From NCBI GenBank assembly GCA_937863205.1, contig CALMGA010000259.1, forward strand, positions 1 to 14,520: DNA of 14,520 nucleotides, written 5' to 3'. Each line of letters opens with the position of its first letter. Positions within the stretch are counted from its first letter, which is position 1. Origin of the DNA: an uncultured Beijerinckiaceae bacterium (GTDB taxonomy: Bacteria; Pseudomonadota; Alphaproteobacteria; Rhizobiales; Beijerinckiaceae). The notes under the pieces are model-generated. The model worked only from the letters and a program-made list of their open reading frames with translations. It was not told the origin of the DNA and did no database searches. Below are positions 2,523 to 12,484 of this stretch, one piece after another. The translations under genes were made by a program, and so were the position numbers.

Positions 2523-3311
2523 ATGCCCTCCATGCTGAGGCCTTCCAGGCCGGTGAACGGGAGTTGCGGCATCGCCGTCATGGCCAAGGCGTCGAAAGCC
2601 GGGCTCACGAAAACGCGTCTTGCCCCGTGCATCGGCATGGGCGAGGCGGCTCGCCTCAACACCGCCTTCCTCCGGGACGCGGCGGCCAACGTCGTTCGCG
2701 CCGGCCAGATCCTGCGCGAATCGCTTGAAGCTCCCGATGATGCCTCCCTCCACGGCTACATGGCCTACGGTCCCCCCGGCGAGGGCGGCTTCTTCGACTT
2801 CCTTCCCGATGGCATCGGCCTGATCGAGGCTTGGCAGGCAAGCTTCGGGGACACGCTGATGCAGGCCTTCGCCGGCCTGCTCGACCGCGGACATGCTGGC
2901 GCCTGCCTCATCAACGCCGACAGCCCGACGCTGCCGCCCGCGCTGCTCGCCGAAGCGGCACGCATGCTCCTCGCGCCGGGTGAACGCGTCGTGCTCGGCC
3001 CCTCGACCGATGGCGGCTACTACCTGATCGGCGCCAGGCGTCTCCATGCCGATCTGTTCGAGGGCATCAGCTGGAGCACGGCCGCCGTGTTCGAGCAGAC
3101 CCTGGACCGGGCTGCGCGGATTGGGCTCGACGTTTGCGTGCTGCCGGTCTGGTACGATGTGGACGACGCCGCCTCGCTGGACACCCTGCGCGCCGAGCTT
3201 TTCGATGGCATGCCGTTCGGGGCGCCGGACCTTCGAGGGGGCGAAGCGCGGCACACCCGCGAAATGCTCGCCGCCATCGACGGGGCCCGCCAGCCGGCGG
3301 CCGTCCCATGA
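2523..3311 (+). CDS. TIGR04282/DUF2064 family transferase
   Basis: The product belongs to the TIGR04282/DUF2064 family, a GT-A-fold nucleotidyl- or glycosyltransferase-like group often found beside radical SAM genes and named in databases for arsenosugar biosynthesis. With Met at 2523 it has 262 residues. The N-terminal nucleotide-binding signature 'AVMAKASKAGLTKTRL' is at about 18-33, 'ADSPTLP' (metal and substrate region) at 132-138, 'STDGGYYLIG' at 161-170 and 'WYDVDD' at 210-215. It has no signal peptide or membrane segment, so it is cytosolic. The start is uncertain: a GTG at 2478 and an ATG at 2532 are also in frame, none has a strong ribosome-binding site, and the conserved domain begins only about 16 residues after 2523. 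It is first in a four-gene same-strand block, 164 bp ahead of the radical SAM gene. The family is confident; the substrate is unknown. Confidence 0.85.
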   Translation: MPSMLRPSRPVNGSCGIAVMAKASKAGLTKTRLAPCIGMGEAARLNTAFLRDAAANVVRAGQILRESLEAPDDASLHGYMAYGPPGEGGFFDFLPDGIGLIEAWQASFGDTLMQAFAGLLDRGHAGACLINADSPTLPPALLAEAARMLLAPGERVVLGPSTDGGYYLIGARRLHADLFEGISWSTAAVFEQTLDRAARIGLDVCVLPVWYDVDDAASLDTLRAELFDGMPFGAPDLRGGEARHTREMLAAIDGARQPAAVP

Positions 3312-3416
3312 GAAACCGTGCACACCCCGGCCTGCCGCTTGCAGGGCGCGCCACGCCATCTTTCCCGCGCTACCCCGGCGGCGCGGGCGCCCAAACCACG
3401 ACACTTCCCGCCCTCG

Positions 3417-3439
3417 CCTCGGAAACGCAGGTTTCGAGG
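3417..3439 (+). promoter_or_regulatory. Hairpin ahead of the radical SAM gene
   Basis: CCTCGGAAAC (3417-3426) and GTTTCGAGG (3431-3439) can pair over nine base pairs with one bulged G and a four-base GCAG loop. The hairpin ends about 37 bases before the radical SAM start. There is no T-run, so it is more likely an mRNA processing, stability or leader element than a terminator, if it has a role at all. Confidence 0.35.
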
Positions 3440-3475
3440 TAACATTTCACCGCCGCAGGGCGAAAAAGGATGGAT

Positions 3476-4537
3476 ATGGAGACCTCAACGACACTTCCCG
3501 ATCCGCGCCGCTATTTCGAAAGCGTCACGCCTCGGCGCGGACCGCAGGTGCAGCGCGGCCCGGTCTGCCTCTACCTGGAGGTGACGAACCGCTGCAACCT
3601 GTTGTGCACCACCTGCCCGCGCACCTACGTCGAGCTGGAGCCGCCGGCCGACATGTCGTGGGAGCTGTTCACGTCGATCGTCGACCAGTCGCCCGACATC
3701 AAGCGCGCGGTTCTGCACGGCGTCGGTGAGCCGATGCTGGTGAAGAATCTGCCGCAGATGGTCCGCTACCTGAAGGATCGAGGCGTTTACACGCTTTTCA
3801 ACACCAACGGCACGCTGCTCACCGAGCGCAACGGCCGGGCGATGATCGAGGCCGGGCTCGACGAGCTGCGGGTCTCGCTGGACGCTTCCAACCCGACCTC
3901 CTACCTCGCCGTGCGCGGCAAGAACTACTTCCATCGCATCCTCCACAACGTCCGGCGCTTCCGCGAGATCCAGGACAAGGAGGGCCACGCGCTGCCCCGC
4001 GTGTCGGCTTGGCTGACCGGCCTCAAGGAGACCATCGACGAGCTGCCCGACTTCGTCCGCGTCGCCGCCGACATCGGCGTCAAGGAGGTCTACCTGCAGC
4101 GCCTCGTTTTCTTTGAAGAGGACGCCAACGGCCTCGCCCGCCCCGATCAGGCTCTCTACGAGCAGCTCGACTCGACCGAAAGCGTCCGCATCGGCGAGGC
4201 CGAGGAGCTTGCCGCCTCGCTCGGCATGACCTTCAGCGCGTCGGGTGCGGCTTCCGAGCCCGGCATGAGCCTGAAGCGGTCCGACAGCTCCTCGCCGTGG
4301 TCGCTGTGCCGGCGCCCGTGGAGCGTGATGTACTTCACCGCCAACGGCCGCTCGCTGCCCTGCTGCATCGCCCCCTTTTCGCAGCGCGGCTACGAGAACT
4401 ACACGCTCGGCGATGCTTCGCAGCAGAGCCTGCGCGACATCTGGAACGGTGACGCCTACGCCGATTTCCGGGACGCTCTTATCTCCGATGCGCCACCCAA
4501 GGCCTGCGCGAGCTGCGGCCTGCGCTGGAGCCTGTAG
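3476..4537 (+). CDS. Radical SAM protein with C-terminal SPASM-type domain
   Basis: This is a 353-residue radical SAM enzyme that should cleave S-adenosylmethionine at a [4Fe-4S] cluster to start radical chemistry on an unknown substrate. The CxxxCxxC motif is Cys40, Cys44 and Cys47 in 'NRCNLLCTTCPRT'. The SAM-contacting region 'GVGEPMLVKNL' and 'FNTNGTLL' follow. The C-terminal region has a SPASM/twitch-like cysteine set: Cys278 ('LCRRPW'), Cys296-Cys297 ('LPCC') and Cys344/Cys347 ('CASC'), with the usual 'LGD...SLRDIWNG' between them. This is enough for one auxiliary cluster rather than two. ATG 3476 was preferred over ATG 3470 because AAAAAGGA (3463-3470) overlaps the earlier codon but lies five bases before the later one. 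The neighbours are two transferases and a nucleoside phosphorylase, so a sugar or nucleoside-derived substrate is plausible. No peptide substrate gene is seen nearby. Confidence 0.92.
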   Translation: METSTTLPDPRRYFESVTPRRGPQVQRGPVCLYLEVTNRCNLLCTTCPRTYVELEPPADMSWELFTSIVDQSPDIKRAVLHGVGEPMLVKNLPQMVRYLKDRGVYTLFNTNGTLLTERNGRAMIEAGLDELRVSLDASNPTSYLAVRGKNYFHRILHNVRRFREIQDKEGHALPRVSAWLTGLKETIDELPDFVRVAADIGVKEVYLQRLVFFEEDANGLARPDQALYEQLDSTESVRIGEAEELAASLGMTFSASGAASEPGMSLKRSDSSSPWSLCRRPWSVMYFTANGRSLPCCIAPFSQRGYENYTLGDASQQSLRDIWNGDAYADFRDALISDAPPKACASCGLRWSL

Positions 4538-4563
4538 GTTGGGGTTGGCCGGAGCCTCCTGAG

Positions 4564-5256
4564 TTGCCGCGACCCGTTGTTCTCGCCATTCCGACGCTGA
4601 ACGAGGCGGCTTCGATCGGCCCCCTGCTCGCCTGCGTTCCGCGCGGTGGCGTCAGCGAGATCGTGGTTGCGGACGGCGGCAGCACGGACGGCACGCAGGA
4701 AGCGGCGGCCCAAGCCGGTGCCCGCGTCCTCGACGCCGGACGGGGCTACGGCCGCGCCTGCTTCAAGGCGGCGGAAAGCGCGCCGGCCGATGCCGTGATG
4801 GTGTTCATGGACGGCGACGGCGCCGACGACCCCGCCCTCATCCCCGATCTCACGGCGCCGATCCTGTCGGGATCCCATGATTTCGTGATCGGCTCGCGCA
4901 CGCGCGGCATCCGCGAAGCGGGCAGCATGGGATGGCATCAGGTCGCCGCCGGTCACCTCATCGGCGCGATGGTGGGCACCCTATATAAGGTCCGCTACAC
5001 CGACATGTGCGCCTTCCGCGCGATCGGGCGCGACACCCTGCTGCAGCTCGGCATGCGCGAGATGACCTACGGTTGGAACCTCGAAATGCAGATGCGGGCG
5101 GCGCGCAAGGGATTGCGCATCCTTGAGCTGCCGGTGACCTGTCGATGCCGGACGGGCGGCGTGTCCAAGGTCGCCGGCACCGTCCGGGGCACGGTGAGGG
5201 CGGGCACGCGCATTGCGGCGACGTTCGCGCGAACGGCGATGGAGAACCGTGGATGA
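4564..5256 (+). CDS. Family 2 glycosyltransferase (DPM1-like, soluble)
   Basis: A GT-A-fold family 2 glycosyltransferase of 230 residues that should transfer a sugar from a nucleotide-sugar donor. Its motifs are 'AIPTLNEAASIG' at the N-terminus (about 8-19), 'DGGSTDGT' at 37-44, the metal-binding acidic motif 'DGDGADDP' at 83-90, 'GSRTRG' at 110-115, and 'GWNLEMQM' at 170-177, where dolichyl-phosphate-mannose-synthase-like enzymes keep a similar pattern. No transmembrane segment follows the catalytic domain, so it is probably cytosolic. The start is TTG at 4564, chosen because GGAG (4551-4554) lies nine bases upstream and there is no earlier in-frame start. It begins 26 bp after the radical SAM stop, and its stop overlaps the next start by four bases (ATGA), so the genes are very likely co-transcribed and translationally coupled. 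The acceptor is unknown. Confidence 0.9.
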   Translation: MPRPVVLAIPTLNEAASIGPLLACVPRGGVSEIVVADGGSTDGTQEAAAQAGARVLDAGRGYGRACFKAAESAPADAVMVFMDGDGADDPALIPDLTAPILSGSHDFVIGSRTRGIREAGSMGWHQVAAGHLIGAMVGTLYKVRYTDMCAFRAIGRDTLLQLGMREMTYGWNLEMQMRAARKGLRILELPVTCRCRTGGVSKVAGTVRGTVRAGTRIAATFARTAMENRG

Positions 5257-6104
5257 GTGCTTCGGGTGCGGTCGACGAGAGCATCCCCCTGCTCGGGCGC
5301 GACGACTTCGAGGAGCCGTCGCTGTTTCGCCCCGAGGTCACGTTGCGCGAAGCGCGGCGGCAGAACAAGCTCCGCTCCGGGCCGGTGCCGCCCGTCTGCA
5401 TCCTCGACCCCGATGGCGATCTGGTCGAATATGCCCGCACCGAGTTCAACGCCACCGTTTCGCGCGATTGGGGCTGCTTCCACACGCGGATGTGGGAATG
5501 GGAGGCTCACGGGTCGCGCTGGGGCGTGATCGGGCATGCCGTGGGCGCTTCCTTCGCGGTGCTGTGCGCCGAGCAGGCCTTCGCATCGGGCTGCGAGGTG
5601 CTCGTCAGCATCACCTCGGCCGGGCAGCTTCGCGCGGTTGGCGAAACGCCCTACCACGTGGTGATCGAGCGGGCGCTGCGCGACGAGGGCACGAGCTACC
5701 ACTACCTGCCGCCCTCGACCTGGGCCGAGGCCGACCCGGCCCTGCTCGCCCTCGTGCAGCGCAGCTTCGCGCCGCTCGCCCAAGGGACCCACCACGAAAT
5801 CCACCGGGGCGCGAGCTGGACCACCGATGCGCCCTATCGGGAAACCGAACGGGCGATCGCCGCGCGGATCGCCGCCGGTGCGGTGGTGGTGGAAATGGAG
5901 GCGGCGGCGCTTTACGCCTTTTCCCAGGCCACCGGCCATCCCGTGCTCTGCCTGGCCCACGTCACCAACAGTCTCGATCGCACCGACAACAACTTCGAGA
6001 AGGGCTTGTACAACGGCGCCCGGGCCTCGCTCGACCTCGTGGAAGCCTTCGTCGGCGCGTGGCTTCCACGCGAAGCGGTGGTGCGCGAGGCCATGATCAC
6101 CTGA
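5253..6104 (+). CDS. Nucleoside phosphorylase (PNP/UDP family)
   Basis: A 283-residue member of the purine/uridine phosphorylase superfamily, which cleaves a nucleoside N-glycosidic bond with phosphate to give a free base and a sugar 1-phosphate. The family core is visible: 'WGVIGHAVGASFA' (90-102), 'ITSAGQL' (120-126, phosphate/base pocket), 'GASWTTDAPYRET' (187-199) and the hallmark 'VEMEAAALYAFS' (213-224), whose Met and Glu contact the ribose in characterised enzymes. The first ~75 residues form a longer N-terminal part than the compact ~250-residue uridine phosphorylases have. ATG 5253 overlaps the glycosyltransferase stop, and GGAG (5241-5244) lies eight bases before it. Its coupling to the radical SAM/glycosyltransferase genes suggests a dedicated pathway role rather than general salvage. 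The actual substrate cannot be read from sequence. Confidence 0.9.
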   Translation: MSASGAVDESIPLLGRDDFEEPSLFRPEVTLREARRQNKLRSGPVPPVCILDPDGDLVEYARTEFNATVSRDWGCFHTRMWEWEAHGSRWGVIGHAVGASFAVLCAEQAFASGCEVLVSITSAGQLRAVGETPYHVVIERALRDEGTSYHYLPPSTWAEADPALLALVQRSFAPLAQGTHHEIHRGASWTTDAPYRETERAIAARIAAGAVVVEMEAAALYAFSQATGHPVLCLAHVTNSLDRTDNNFEKGLYNGARASLDLVEAFVGAWLPREAVVREAMIT

Positions 6105-11356: not shown

Positions 11357-12484
11357 TCAGGTCCAGTACAGCACCCGCGTGCCCGGCAGGACGGCGGCGA
11401 GCCCGTCCGTCAGCCGGGCGCGCATTTCCTTCATCAAGGCGGCGGGGTAGACGTGCTTGACCCCGCCGAACTTGGTCAACTTGCGCGAGCGGGCGGTCTC
11501 GTCCATGTCGAGCTTGCTGGCGGGATACCAGCCCTGCAGCACGCCCTTCGACTTGGGGGTGAAGCGGTGGGTGATGAACTCGGCCGTCAGGTCGAGGTCC
11601 GGCGCGCCGGCCACCGCCTTGGCGACGTCGGCGAGCAGCGCGGCGTAGCTTTCGCGCCAGCCCTCCACCGGCTGGATCGGCGCCACCGTCAGCCCGACCT
11701 TGTAGCCGCAGCGGGCAAGCTGGCCCAGCGCCCGCAGGCGGGCGGGCAGCGCCGACGTGCCGCCCTCGAAGCGCATCAGGTCGGGGATGTTGAGCGAGAA
11801 GCGAACACGCACCCTGCCGCCATGGTCGAGCCCGAGCAGGGGCGCCACGTCGGCGAACTTGGTGGTGAAGCGCAGTTGCACCGCCGCGTCCCAGCGCCCG
11901 AAGAAGCGCACGGTGTCGGCAAGGCTGCCGGTGAGGTGCTCGATGCCGAGCGGGTCGGTGTAGCAGGAGGCTTCAAAGGTGGTGCCCTCGTGCGAGCGGG
12001 CGAGCGTGCCGGTGGTGACCGCGCCCTTGCCGAGGTAGGCCGGCAGCTCGTCCAGGATCTCTTCGGTGTTGGCGTAGACCCGCGTCACCGGCGGGCCGCC
12101 GAGCGAACCCGCGAGGTAGCAGTACTGGCAATGGGCCGGGCAACCCTCGGCGAGGACGAAGCGCCAGTCGGCGGAGGGCGGGATCGGCTGCAGGCGACGC
12201 TTGGCAGGGGACGCCACGGTGACGGCCAGCGTCGCCTTGGCGAGGCGATAGGCGGCGCGCGGGTCCGCCTCGGTGGACAGGCCGGCGAGGCGGTCGCCGG
12301 GCAGTTCGATGACATCGGCGCCGAGCGCCGCCGCCCGCCCGGCGATGAGGCGGCCACGCGGCCAGTCCCGCGCCGCCCGCGTCAGCAGCACCCGCTTGGG
12401 CCGCCACAGCCGTGCTTCGCCGGGCCCGTCCGGCGCGGGAGACGGCGGGACGTCAAGGACGGAAGCTGTCGCGGGCAGGATCAT
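11357..12484 (-). CDS. Spore photoproduct lyase family radical SAM protein
   Basis: A 375-residue radical SAM protein that matches the SplB family, whose Bacillus member repairs the thymine dimer 'spore photoproduct' in DNA by direct reversal. The SAM-cluster motif is Cys115, Cys119 and Cys122 in 'AEGCPAHCQYCYLAGSLGGPP', close to the family pattern. Cys174 in 'FEASCYTDPLGIEHLTGSL' aligns with the H-atom-donating cysteine of Bacillus SplB (Cys141 in 'ACTSD.VGIDHLTHSL', from memory). The C-terminus runs to a normal length ('...RVLYWT'). The start is ATG 12484 without a clear ribosome-binding site; the conserved region begins at about residue 27. It is a standalone minus-strand gene between the MgtC-like gene and the 76-residue gene. 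Since the window is alphaproteobacterial and non-sporulating, the natural lesion or substrate is uncertain. Confidence 0.88.
   Translation of the reverse strand: MILPATASVLDVPPSPAPDGPGEARLWRPKRVLLTRAARDWPRGRLIAGRAAALGADVIELPGDRLAGLSTEADPRAAYRLAKATLAVTVASPAKRRLQPIPPSADWRFVLAEGCPAHCQYCYLAGSLGGPPVTRVYANTEEILDELPAYLGKGAVTTGTLARSHEGTTFEASCYTDPLGIEHLTGSLADTVRFFGRWDAAVQLRFTTKFADVAPLLGLDHGGRVRVRFSLNIPDLMRFEGGTSALPARLRALGQLARCGYKVGLTVAPIQPVEGWRESYAALLADVAKAVAGAPDLDLTAEFITHRFTPKSKGVLQGWYPASKLDMDETARSRKLTKFGGVKHVYPAALMKEMRARLTDGLAAVLPGTRVLYWT

What the first reader, a model, noticed from the sequence alone, without database searches (positions are those of the whole stretch)
2523..6104. Four-gene radical SAM / two transferase / nucleoside phosphorylase cluster of unknown product
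Seen: a DUF2064/TIGR04282 transferase, a SPASM-type radical SAM enzyme, a family 2 glycosyltransferase and a PNP/UDP phosphorylase lie in order on one strand, the last two with a 4-bp ATGA overlap. Known: radical SAM enzymes can attach 5'-deoxyadenosyl groups to substrates (HpnH on hopenes; ArsS in arsenosugar formation), and a phosphorylase can then remove the adenine (HpnG after HpnH). TIGR04282 is tied to arsenosugar loci. Inference: this block may build a glycosylated or ribosylated small molecule in which the phosphorylase works on a nucleoside-like intermediate. No arsM, arsS, hpnH or hpnG is visible, so it is not simply one of the known pathways.
Basis: partly seen in the sequence, partly recalled or inferred. 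Interest (0 to 1): 0.72.

Follow-up and report, generated by a model that had tools for sequence, protein, structure and literature searches.

The report
Radical-SAM variant of methylthio-sugar capping locus
Four neighbouring genes look like the core of a pathway that turns a sulphur-containing by-product of metabolism into an unusual sugar for the bacterial envelope; it resembles the pathway that caps a tuberculosis surface glycan, but with a radical enzyme where related loci carry an ordinary sugar epimerase.

Summary
In detail: DUF2064, radical SAM/SPASM, family 2 glycosyltransferase and PNP-type genes lie in order on the + strand (2523-6104) with an ATGA overlap. The set is conserved: in 44 distinct loci with this rSAM, DUF2064 is in 44, GT2 in 43, PNP in 17, and 12 keep the exact order.

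Relatives add what the window lacks: a GT-C membrane glycosyltransferase (GT87, or a 668-aa protein whose model best matches arabinofuranosyltransferase AftA), an MsrP-like molybdenum enzyme with cytochrome b561, and genes that process methylthioadenosine (MTA). This resembles the actinobacterial methylthioxylose (MTX) locus. Where the rSAM is absent a GalE-type epimerase stands instead (0 of 44 against 22 of 26). All 17 genomes with methylthioribose kinase in the locus lack MtnA (8 of 18 other genomes have it).

Best reading: MTA gives a 5-methylthiopentose that is activated, loaded on polyprenyl phosphate and placed on the envelope; the rSAM does the epimerase's job and the phosphorylase supplies the sugar. 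No step is shown biochemically. New variant of a known kind.

The parts
2523..3311 (+). DUF2064 / TIGR04282-like gene, predicted nucleotidyltransferase for a 5-modified pentose-1-phosphate
   Evidence: PF09837 84.8 bits; TIGR04282 130.2 of 134, CofC TIGR03552 17.9 of 105; closest solved sequence 3cgx, a putative nucleotide-diphospho-sugar transferase; the relative in L117 passes the CofC Pfam cut-off and is fused to a Nudix domain; fused to GT2 in L217. Role inferred.
3470..4537 (+). radical SAM/SPASM enzyme, predicted to act on the (lipid-linked) sugar in place of an epimerase
   Evidence: PF04055 and PF13186; best NCBIfam TIGR04317 145 of 380; nearest solved sequences BtrN, a tetraether synthase, DesII, cytosylglucuronate decarboxylase, MoaA, PqqE; fused to GT87 in L127 and L150.
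3593..3616 (+). CxxxCxxC cluster motif (Cys42, Cys46, Cys49)
   Evidence: invariant in 24 of 24 aligned rSAMs
4307..4516 (+). SPASM region with Cys280, Cys298, Cys299, Cys346, Cys349
   Evidence: invariant in 24 of 24
4564..5256 (+). GT2, predicted polyprenyl-phosphate sugar synthase (DPM1-like)
   Evidence: PF00535 59.4 bits; AglJ TIGR04182 120 of 325; solved relatives glucosyl-3-phosphoglycerate synthase and dolichol monophosphate mannose synthase; fused to GT87 in L117.
5253..5256 (+). ATGA overlap of GT2 stop and PNP start
   Evidence: sequence
5253..6104 (+). PNP-fold enzyme, predicted nucleosidase or phosphorylase for MTA-like nucleosides
   Evidence: PF01048 102.4 bits; AlphaFold pLDDT 92.2; top five Foldseek PDB hits are 5'-deoxy-5'-methylthioadenosine phosphorylase chains; by profile, uridine phosphorylase 4lnh is first and MTA phosphorylase 1jds second.
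5607..5609 (+). Ser119 codon, where PDB phosphorylases have Arg
   Evidence: Arg in 0 of 64 family members; Arg in all five printed PDB alignments

Best explanation
The four genes are the cytoplasmic core of an envelope-glycan pathway that works like the mycobacterial methylthioxylose (MTX) capping pathway. Inferred route: (1) MTA is cleaved to 5-methylthioribose or its 1-phosphate, by the PNP-fold enzyme here, and in relatives by MTA/SAH nucleosidase + MtnK or by MTA phosphorylase; (2) DUF2064 nucleotidylates the sugar-1-phosphate; (3) the DPM1-like GT2 moves the sugar to polyprenyl phosphate; (4) the radical SAM/SPASM enzyme changes the sugar or lipid-linked sugar, doing the job of the GalE-type epimerase of sister loci (most simply ribo to xylo at C3); (5) a GT-C enzyme (GT87 or the 668-aa type) places the pentofuranose on an envelope acceptor; (6) in many relatives an MsrP-like Mo enzyme with cytochrome b561 acts on the cap in the periplasm, most likely reducing its sulfoxide. 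Shown by computation: gene set, fusions, exchange of rSAM and epimerase, co-location of MTA-processing genes. Inferred: every reaction. The parts for steps 5 and 6 are seen only in relatives; none lies in the 14.5-kb window.
For: Gene set in 44 loci: DUF2064 44, GT2 43. Fusions GT87+GT2 (L117), GT87+rSAM (L127, L150) and DUF2064+GT2 (L217). GT87 (20 loci) and the 668-aa protein (18) never occur together; the 668-aa model's best Foldseek hit is AftA and its ten hits at E<=0.001 are GT-C enzymes (GT-C label recalled). Epimerase 0 of 44 rSAM loci, but 6 of 6 non-rSAM loci with this GT2 (L204, with DUF2064 but no such GT2, has none) and 16 of 20 loci of rSAM-free genomes with the 668-aa GT-C. MtnK over cut-off in the locus in 9 of 44 rSAM loci and 8 of 20 rSAM-free loci; 17 of 17 of those genomes lack MtnA, and in 8 of 8 tested it is the only MtnK. 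MTA/SAH nucleosidase over cut-off in L215, L216, L219; MTA phosphorylase over cut-off in L227. Actinobacterial loci with epimerase, GT2 and DUF2064, L203 also with an MTAP-like gene, and L203 and L206 with a Mo domain protein. MTX made by MtxS/MtxT in M. tuberculosis (PMC8780516 legend); its sulfoxide found in LAM (PMC8531672 passages).
Against: No product is known; GT2 similarity to the actinobacterial GT2s is only 34-39% and DPM1-like GT2s are common. The window has no GT-C, Mo enzyme, epimerase or mtnK, and L142 and L146 show no GT-C in 20 kb. 27 of 44 rSAM loci have no counted PNP and 18 no Mo enzyme (some contigs are short). MtnA is also absent from 10 of 18 other genomes of the family sample, so its absence alone is not unusual; the 17 genomes are close kin. 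Genome G001 also has an MTA/SAH nucleosidase outside the locus, so PNP is not its only candidate for MTA. PNP is closer by profile to uridine phosphorylase 4lnh than to MTA phosphorylase. The Mo enzyme scores nearer sulfite dehydrogenase than MsrP in the actinobacterial form.
Confidence: 0.55

Rival explanations
1. Same lipid-linked sugar pathway, but the sugar is a 5-deoxypentose made from 5'-deoxyadenosine, the by-product of radical SAM enzymes, not a 5-methylthiopentose.
For: Two radical SAM enzymes occur in 8 of 44 loci; a promiscuous MtnK-like kinase has been proposed to give 5-deoxyribose-1-phosphate (PMC6302742 passages); 5'-dAdo salvage into a special sugar exists elsewhere (PMC8102628, abstract start in a listing).
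Against: The MTA/SAH nucleosidase, MTA phosphorylase and MtnK genes stay with the locus in rSAM-free genomes, where no rSAM by-product from this enzyme arises; the MsrP-like Mo enzyme suits a thioether or sulfoxide.
Confidence: 0.18
2. The rSAM is a maturase for the molybdenum enzyme or another protein, not a sugar-modifying enzyme.
For: Best NCBIfam hits are TIGR04317 (tungsten oxidoreductase maturase) and TIGR04311, far under cut-off; the Mo enzyme is in 26 of 44 rSAM loci.
Against: 19 of 20 rSAM-free loci keep the same Mo enzyme without the rSAM; 18 of 44 rSAM loci show no Mo enzyme; fusion to GT87.
Confidence: 0.12
3. One reading: the rSAM attaches a 5'-deoxyadenosyl group to a small molecule, the phosphorylase removes adenine, and the transferases glycosylate the product.
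For: The rSAM/phosphorylase pairing recalls HpnH/HpnG (recalled); TIGR04282 is named for arsenosugar loci.
Against: PNP is absent from 27 of 44 rSAM loci; the rSAM trades places with an epimerase; no HpnG, TIGR04283 or other equivalog score is reached.
Confidence: 0.08
4. The phosphorylase is an ordinary or unrelated nucleoside salvage enzyme that happens to sit next to a GT2/rSAM/DUF2064 sugar cluster.
For: Most family members live in other neighbourhoods (77 of 80 loci without this rSAM); 27 of 44 rSAM loci have no counted PNP.
Against: ATGA overlap; same position in 12 of 44 loci; a separate PNP clade joined the locus in Bradyrhizobium-type loci; 26 of 44 rSAM+ against 30 of 252 rSAM- genomes; PNP in 12 of 13 rSAM+ genomes without a MTAP hit and 14 of 31 with one (p = 0.006, mostly one clade).
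Confidence: 0.25

Closest known systems
Methylthioxylose (MTX) capping of mycobacterial lipoarabinomannan (MtxS = Rv0539, MtxT = Rv0541c)
   Same: DPM1-like GT2 next to DUF2064; in relatives a membrane GT, a Mo domain protein and MTA-processing genes. The Mycolicibacterium locus L203 has MTAP-like, epimerase, GT2, DUF2064, Mo domain protein, a 451-aa membrane protein and MenE, like the M. tuberculosis order as I recall it.
   Different: rSAM/SPASM instead of the GalE-type epimerase; a different GT-C family; separate cytochrome b561 and Mo enzyme; the acceptor cannot be LAM in these bacteria (recalled).
Three-component pentofuranose systems (undP-Ribf, epimerase, flippase, GT-C; PMC11127046)
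   Same: Polyprenyl-P-pentofuranose, an epimerase acting on the lipid-linked sugar, a GT-C transferase (first part of the Discussion read).
   Different: Those start from PRPP with a phosphoribosyltransferase; here GT2 and DUF2064 imply a nucleotide-sugar donor. A PRPP-type synthase was not searched for.
Arsenosugar loci (TIGR04282, TIGR04283, ArsS)
   Same: TIGR04282-like protein, an rSAM and a GT2.
   Different: TIGR04282 just under cut-off, TIGR04283 far under; ArsM and ArsS were not seen in the window's ORFs.
HpnH/HpnG adenosylhopane pathway
   Same: rSAM with a PNP-fold enzyme.
   Different: HpnG 25 of 187 bits; HpnH not among the 25 best rSAM matches shown.

Membership tests
MTX capping locus | DPM1-like GT2 (MtxS type) next to DUF2064 | tested here: met
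   Both in the window, with the rSAM between them; GT2 34-39% identical to the GT2s of L203, L205, L206, L207. No MtxS model exists in the libraries used.
MTX capping locus | GT-C transferase (MtxT) | tested here: inconclusive
   Absent from the window, present as GT87 or the 668-aa protein in 38 of 44 rSAM loci; not the actinobacterial family.
MTX capping locus | GalE-type epimerase | tested here: not met
   0 of 44 rSAM loci including the window
MTX capping locus | Product is a 5-methylthiopentose on an envelope glycan | not testable with these tools
   Needs chemistry; only gene co-location supports it.
Arsenosugar biosynthesis | TIGR04282 and TIGR04283 over cut-off | tested here: not met
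   130.2 of 134 and 40.2 of 182
Arsenosugar biosynthesis | ArsM and ArsS present | tested here: inconclusive
   Not among the window proteins scanned; the genome is not held.
HpnH/HpnG | HpnG equivalog score | tested here: not met
   25.1 of 187.1
Methionine salvage | MtnA with MtnK or MTA phosphorylase | tested here: not met
   MtnA absent from 17 of 17 genomes with in-locus mtnK; not testable in the window's own genome.
Tungsten/metalloenzyme rSAM maturases (TIGR04317, TIGR04311) | Equivalog or subfamily score | tested here: not met
   145 of 380 and 115 of 400
Nucleoside phosphorylase (phosphorolytic) | Arg at the phosphate-site position (role recalled) | tested here: not met
   Arg in 0 of 64; Arg in the five printed PDB sequences
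Three-component pentofuranose system | PRPP-dependent polyprenyl-P synthase | not tested
   No search with that family was made.

The most novel reading that the evidence does not exclude
The full loci build a renewable sulphur shield. An MTA-derived 5-methylthio-pentofuranose caps an envelope glycan and is oxidised to its sulfoxide by reactive oxygen or chlorine species; the MsrP-like Mo enzyme, fed by cytochrome b561 from the quinone pool, reduces it back, so a surface carbohydrate works as a rechargeable antioxidant. In the window's lineage a radical SAM/SPASM enzyme has taken over the epimerase step on the lipid-linked sugar.
Probability: 0.25. Interest if true: 0.88.

Novelty: new variant of a known kind. 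Interest (0 to 1): 0.74.

Why it matters
In the papers seen, MTX is described for the tuberculosis complex. Similar gene sets in alphaproteobacteria, on Methylobacterium plasmids, and in Myxococcota and Rubrobacteraceae MAGs suggest that MTA-derived sugars may be far wider on bacterial surfaces. If true, DUF2064/TIGR04282 gets a testable role (activation of 5-modified pentose-1-phosphates, which would also fit arsenosugar loci), an uncharacterised rSAM/SPASM family gets a candidate reaction, an orphan MtnK without MtnA is explained, and MsrP-like Mo enzymes get a possible carbohydrate substrate.

Tried and rejected
Rejected as identities: arsenosugar pathway, HpnH/HpnG, ordinary methionine salvage, Mo-enzyme maturase (see membership and rivals). 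Led nowhere: paper searches for TIGR04282/DUF2064 (2 papers, listing only), radical SAM with arsenosugar and nucleoside phosphorylase (0), two of Rv1679-Rv1681 (0). The rSAM2, SBP-like and acyl-CoA-dehydrogenase genes of Bradyrhizobium-type loci (NCBIfam Rv1681-, Rv1680-, Rv1679-like; only rSAM2 over its cut-off) occur in 8 of 44 rSAM loci and remain unexplained. My early idea that PNP is the only MTA-cleaving enzyme of the Xanthobacter-type genomes was dropped when an MTA/SAH nucleosidase turned up in G001. My early link of mtnK with PNP was corrected: mtnK goes with the GT-C/Mo block, since 8 rSAM-free loci without PNP have it too.

Choices behind counts: thresholds are mine; 'close Mo enzyme' (bits 300 or more) was chosen after seeing the table. 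The 43 relatives are 36 of the 44 rSAM+ genomes, plus G364, G007, G002, G003 and three plasmids; G468, G470, G539, G554, G583, G631, G637 and G643 were not fetched at length. Of 29 rSAM-free genomes with the 668-aa GT-C, 20 were fetched; the 4 of 20 loci without the epimerase are L220, L222, L228 (contig ends or short stretches; L228 shows only the Mo enzyme contig) and L229 (no Mo enzyme). Of the non-rSAM DUF2064 loci, L204 was left out of the 6 because it has no matching GT2; with it the tally is 22 of 27. L056 supplied the epimerase query. Genes were called by my own codon script. The 47 Mo-enzyme rows count two loci twice.
Full report
What is there. The four ORFs and the ATGA overlap are as described and Pfam confirms the families. 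No NCBIfam cut-off is reached: TIGR04282 is 3.8 bits short, the others far short. Neighbours in the window by Pfam: a penicillin-binding protein C-terminal part, AAA ATPase, HerA-like protein, GapR, DUF4189, GNAT, spore-photoproduct-lyase family, MgtC and ATP synthase delta. No whole genome is held for the window; an alphaproteobacterial source is my inference from these and from the named phosphorylase relatives (Beijerinckia, Azorhizobium).

Conservation. By tblastn 3 of 80 carry this rSAM together with GT2 and DUF2064 (L005, L007, L009); L002 carries GT2 and DUF2064 without the rSAM; L056 carries GT2 and, at its contig end, a partial DUF2064. From the rSAM side: 2 of 385 genomes sampled from the class and 44 of 296 from the family of Xanthobacter. 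I fetched up to 20 kb for 40 genomes and three plasmid regions. With the window this makes 44 distinct rSAM loci (45 table rows; L007 and L154 are one). In the 44: DUF2064 44, GT2 43, PNP 17, Mo enzyme 26, cytochrome b561 26, PRC-barrel protein 22, 668-aa GT-C 18, GT87 20, mtnK 9, epimerase 0. GT2 directly follows the rSAM in 41; the window's exact order is seen in 12 including the window.

A GT-C partner. GT87 and the 668-aa membrane protein never occur together; six loci show neither (L119, L121, L142, L144, L146 and the window). L117 has one protein with GT87 and GT2 domains; L127 and L150 one with GT87 and rSAM/SPASM domains; L217 one with DUF2064 and GT2. The 668-aa protein has no Pfam or NCBIfam match. 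Its model (pLDDT 80.6) matches AftA best (E 1e-6, TM 0.50, rmsd 12.4), then C-mannosyltransferase DPY19 and oligosaccharyltransferases: fold level only.

The sister locus. In L203 (Mycolicibacterium), L205 and L207 (Pseudonocardia) and L206 (Nocardioides) DUF2064 sits beside a GT2 (34-39% identical to the window's) near a GalE-like epimerase. L203 and L206 also have a Mo domain protein and an unnamed membrane protein of 451 or 453 aa. In L203 an MTAP-like gene lies directly before the epimerase and a MenE over its cut-off follows. This is like the M. tuberculosis region Rv0535-Rv0545c as I recall it. Papers: MtxS (Rv0539) forms MTX-P-C50 and MtxT (Rv0541c) transfers MTX to LAM caps (PMC8780516, legend passage; also PMC8081860, passages). 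The primary paper (Angala 2017) is not held. The sulfoxide form MSX is found with MTX in LAM (PMC8531672, passages); anti-oxidative properties of MTX have been proposed (PMC10503756, passages).

Exchange of rSAM and epimerase. The 668-aa GT-C is in 56 of 296 genomes of the family sample, 27 of them rSAM+. Of the 29 without the rSAM, 20 were fetched. In these 20 loci: epimerase 16, GT2 15, DUF2064 14 (L217 has it fused to GT2 and is not counted), Mo enzyme 19, GT-C 19, mtnK 8, rSAM 0, PNP 0. A Cys/Met-family PLP enzyme is in 14 (in L212 350 bits of 513 for cystathionine gamma-synthase) and a small transporter in 8 (ArnF-like, 61.9 of 99 bits in L212). With L002, L056, L203, L205, L206 and L207 (6 of 6 with the epimerase) the tally is 0 of 44 against 22 of 26, or 22 of 27 with L204. 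The simplest inference is that the rSAM supplies the epimerase's chemistry, perhaps also that of the PLP enzyme. Its nearest solved sequences include sugar-active enzymes (BtrN, DesII, cytosylglucuronate decarboxylase) but also a tetraether synthase, MoaA and PqqE, so this is weak. Published pentofuranose systems put the epimerase after loading on undecaprenyl phosphate (PMC11127046, part 1 of the Discussion read), which suits an rSAM fused to a membrane GT.

Where the sugar comes from. MtnK in the locus is over cut-off (L009 448.5, L212 454.7, of 275). In 8 of 8 such genomes tested it is the only MtnK. All 17 genomes with in-locus mtnK lack MtnA. For comparison MtnA is in 20 of 23 fetched rSAM+ genomes without in-locus mtnK, in 8 of 10 fetched rSAM-free genomes without it, and in 8 of 18 other genomes of the sample; so missing MtnA is common in the family, and the 17 are close kin. 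MTA/SAH nucleosidase lies in L215, L216 and L219 (275-288 bits of 152) and MTA phosphorylase in L227 (299 of 274.85). Of 44 rSAM+ genomes 31 have a MTA phosphorylase hit (25 over the cut-off); 13 have none, among them all 9 with PNP and mtnK in the locus. G001 has an MTA/SAH nucleosidase elsewhere (296.6 of 152); the similar hits of G433 and G486 were fetched but not scored.

The phosphorylase. Its model (pLDDT 92.2) has MTA phosphorylase chains as its top five PDB hits; by profile uridine phosphorylase 4lnh ranks first and MTA phosphorylase 1jds second. The position where the five printed PDB sequences have Arg holds Ser (52), Gly, Asn, Ala, His or Thr in 64 of 64 family members; position 56 is acidic in 64 of 64; the E-M-E ribose stretch is kept (E214 and M215 64 of 64, E216 59 of 64). 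That Arg binds phosphate in phosphorylases is recalled; hydrolysis is therefore my guess. PNPs of rSAM loci fall in two groups: 12 of 13 Xanthobacter-type ones, with the window, in a 36-row clade (97/99; the other 24 rows are metagenome proteins of unknown neighbourhood, L154 lies outside on a long branch), and 4 Bradyrhizobium-type ones in another clade (100/100).

The molybdenum enzyme. PF00174. In Xanthobacter MsrP (82 of 207 bits) is ahead of sulfite dehydrogenase (31 of 420); in L203 and L206 sulfite dehydrogenase is ahead. CVEGW is in 46 of 47 rows. Close homologues and the 668-aa GT-C go together: 51 genomes have both, of 53 and 56. Sulfoxide reduction on the cap is my boldest reading and is not shown.

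Novelty in print. Searches for TIGR04282/DUF2064, MTX gene names, arsenosugar/rSAM combinations, methylthio sugars with alphaproteobacteria, MTX with MsrP/molybdenum/radical SAM, MTX with MTA/Xanthobacter and GalE3/MTAP/methylthioribose listed, among the rows shown, no paper on such loci outside mycobacteria. The library is open-licence PMC, several lists were cut, and most papers were seen only as listings.

Verdict. A conserved system and a new variant of the MTX kind, with a radical SAM enzyme where sister loci have an epimerase. The window carries only its cytoplasmic core.

Noticed in passing
L004, L029, L030, L031, L037, L039, L061, L076 and others of L001-L080: Phosphorylases of this family outside the GT locus often lie within four genes of ArsR-type regulators, MFS transporters, DsrE-like proteins, cysteine-desulfurase-like proteins, MBL hydrolases and metal ATPases (my reading of the sequences; families 1, 2, 3, 4, 8, 15): a possible sulphur or metal link.
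   Followed up: partly
L005:4484-7657, L047:8794-11721, L056:3545-8685: A three-gene module like mycobacterial Rv1681 (rSAM, over cut-off), Rv1680 (SBP-like) and Rv1679 (acyl-CoA dehydrogenase) travels with the phosphorylase in Bradyrhizobium, Pseudonocardia and Myxococcales loci.
   Followed up: partly
L115, L116, L117: The cluster is plasmid-borne in Methylobacterium aquaticum and M. radiotolerans (plasmids typed mobilizable) and Miltoncostaea oceani, where selD, selA and selB lie about 9 kb from the rSAM.
   Followed up: no
L117:9756-10958: DUF2064 fused to a Nudix domain, and over the CofC Pfam cut-off.
   Followed up: no
L127 and L149: A protein that looks like a ModA-type molybdate-binding protein lies next to cytochrome b561 and the Mo enzyme (my reading of the sequence; not scored).
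   Followed up: no
L212:15223-16398: A Cys/Met-family PLP enzyme is part of 14 of 20 rSAM-free loci; its role is unknown.
   Followed up: partly
L204:9727-14621: A Pseudonocardia locus with DUF2064, another type of GT2 and an rSAM2-like protein, perhaps an arsenosugar-type locus (not scored).
   Followed up: no
window 11357-12484 (-): Spore-photoproduct-lyase family protein (PF20903, 254.7 bits) between MgtC and a small unnamed ORF.
   Followed up: no
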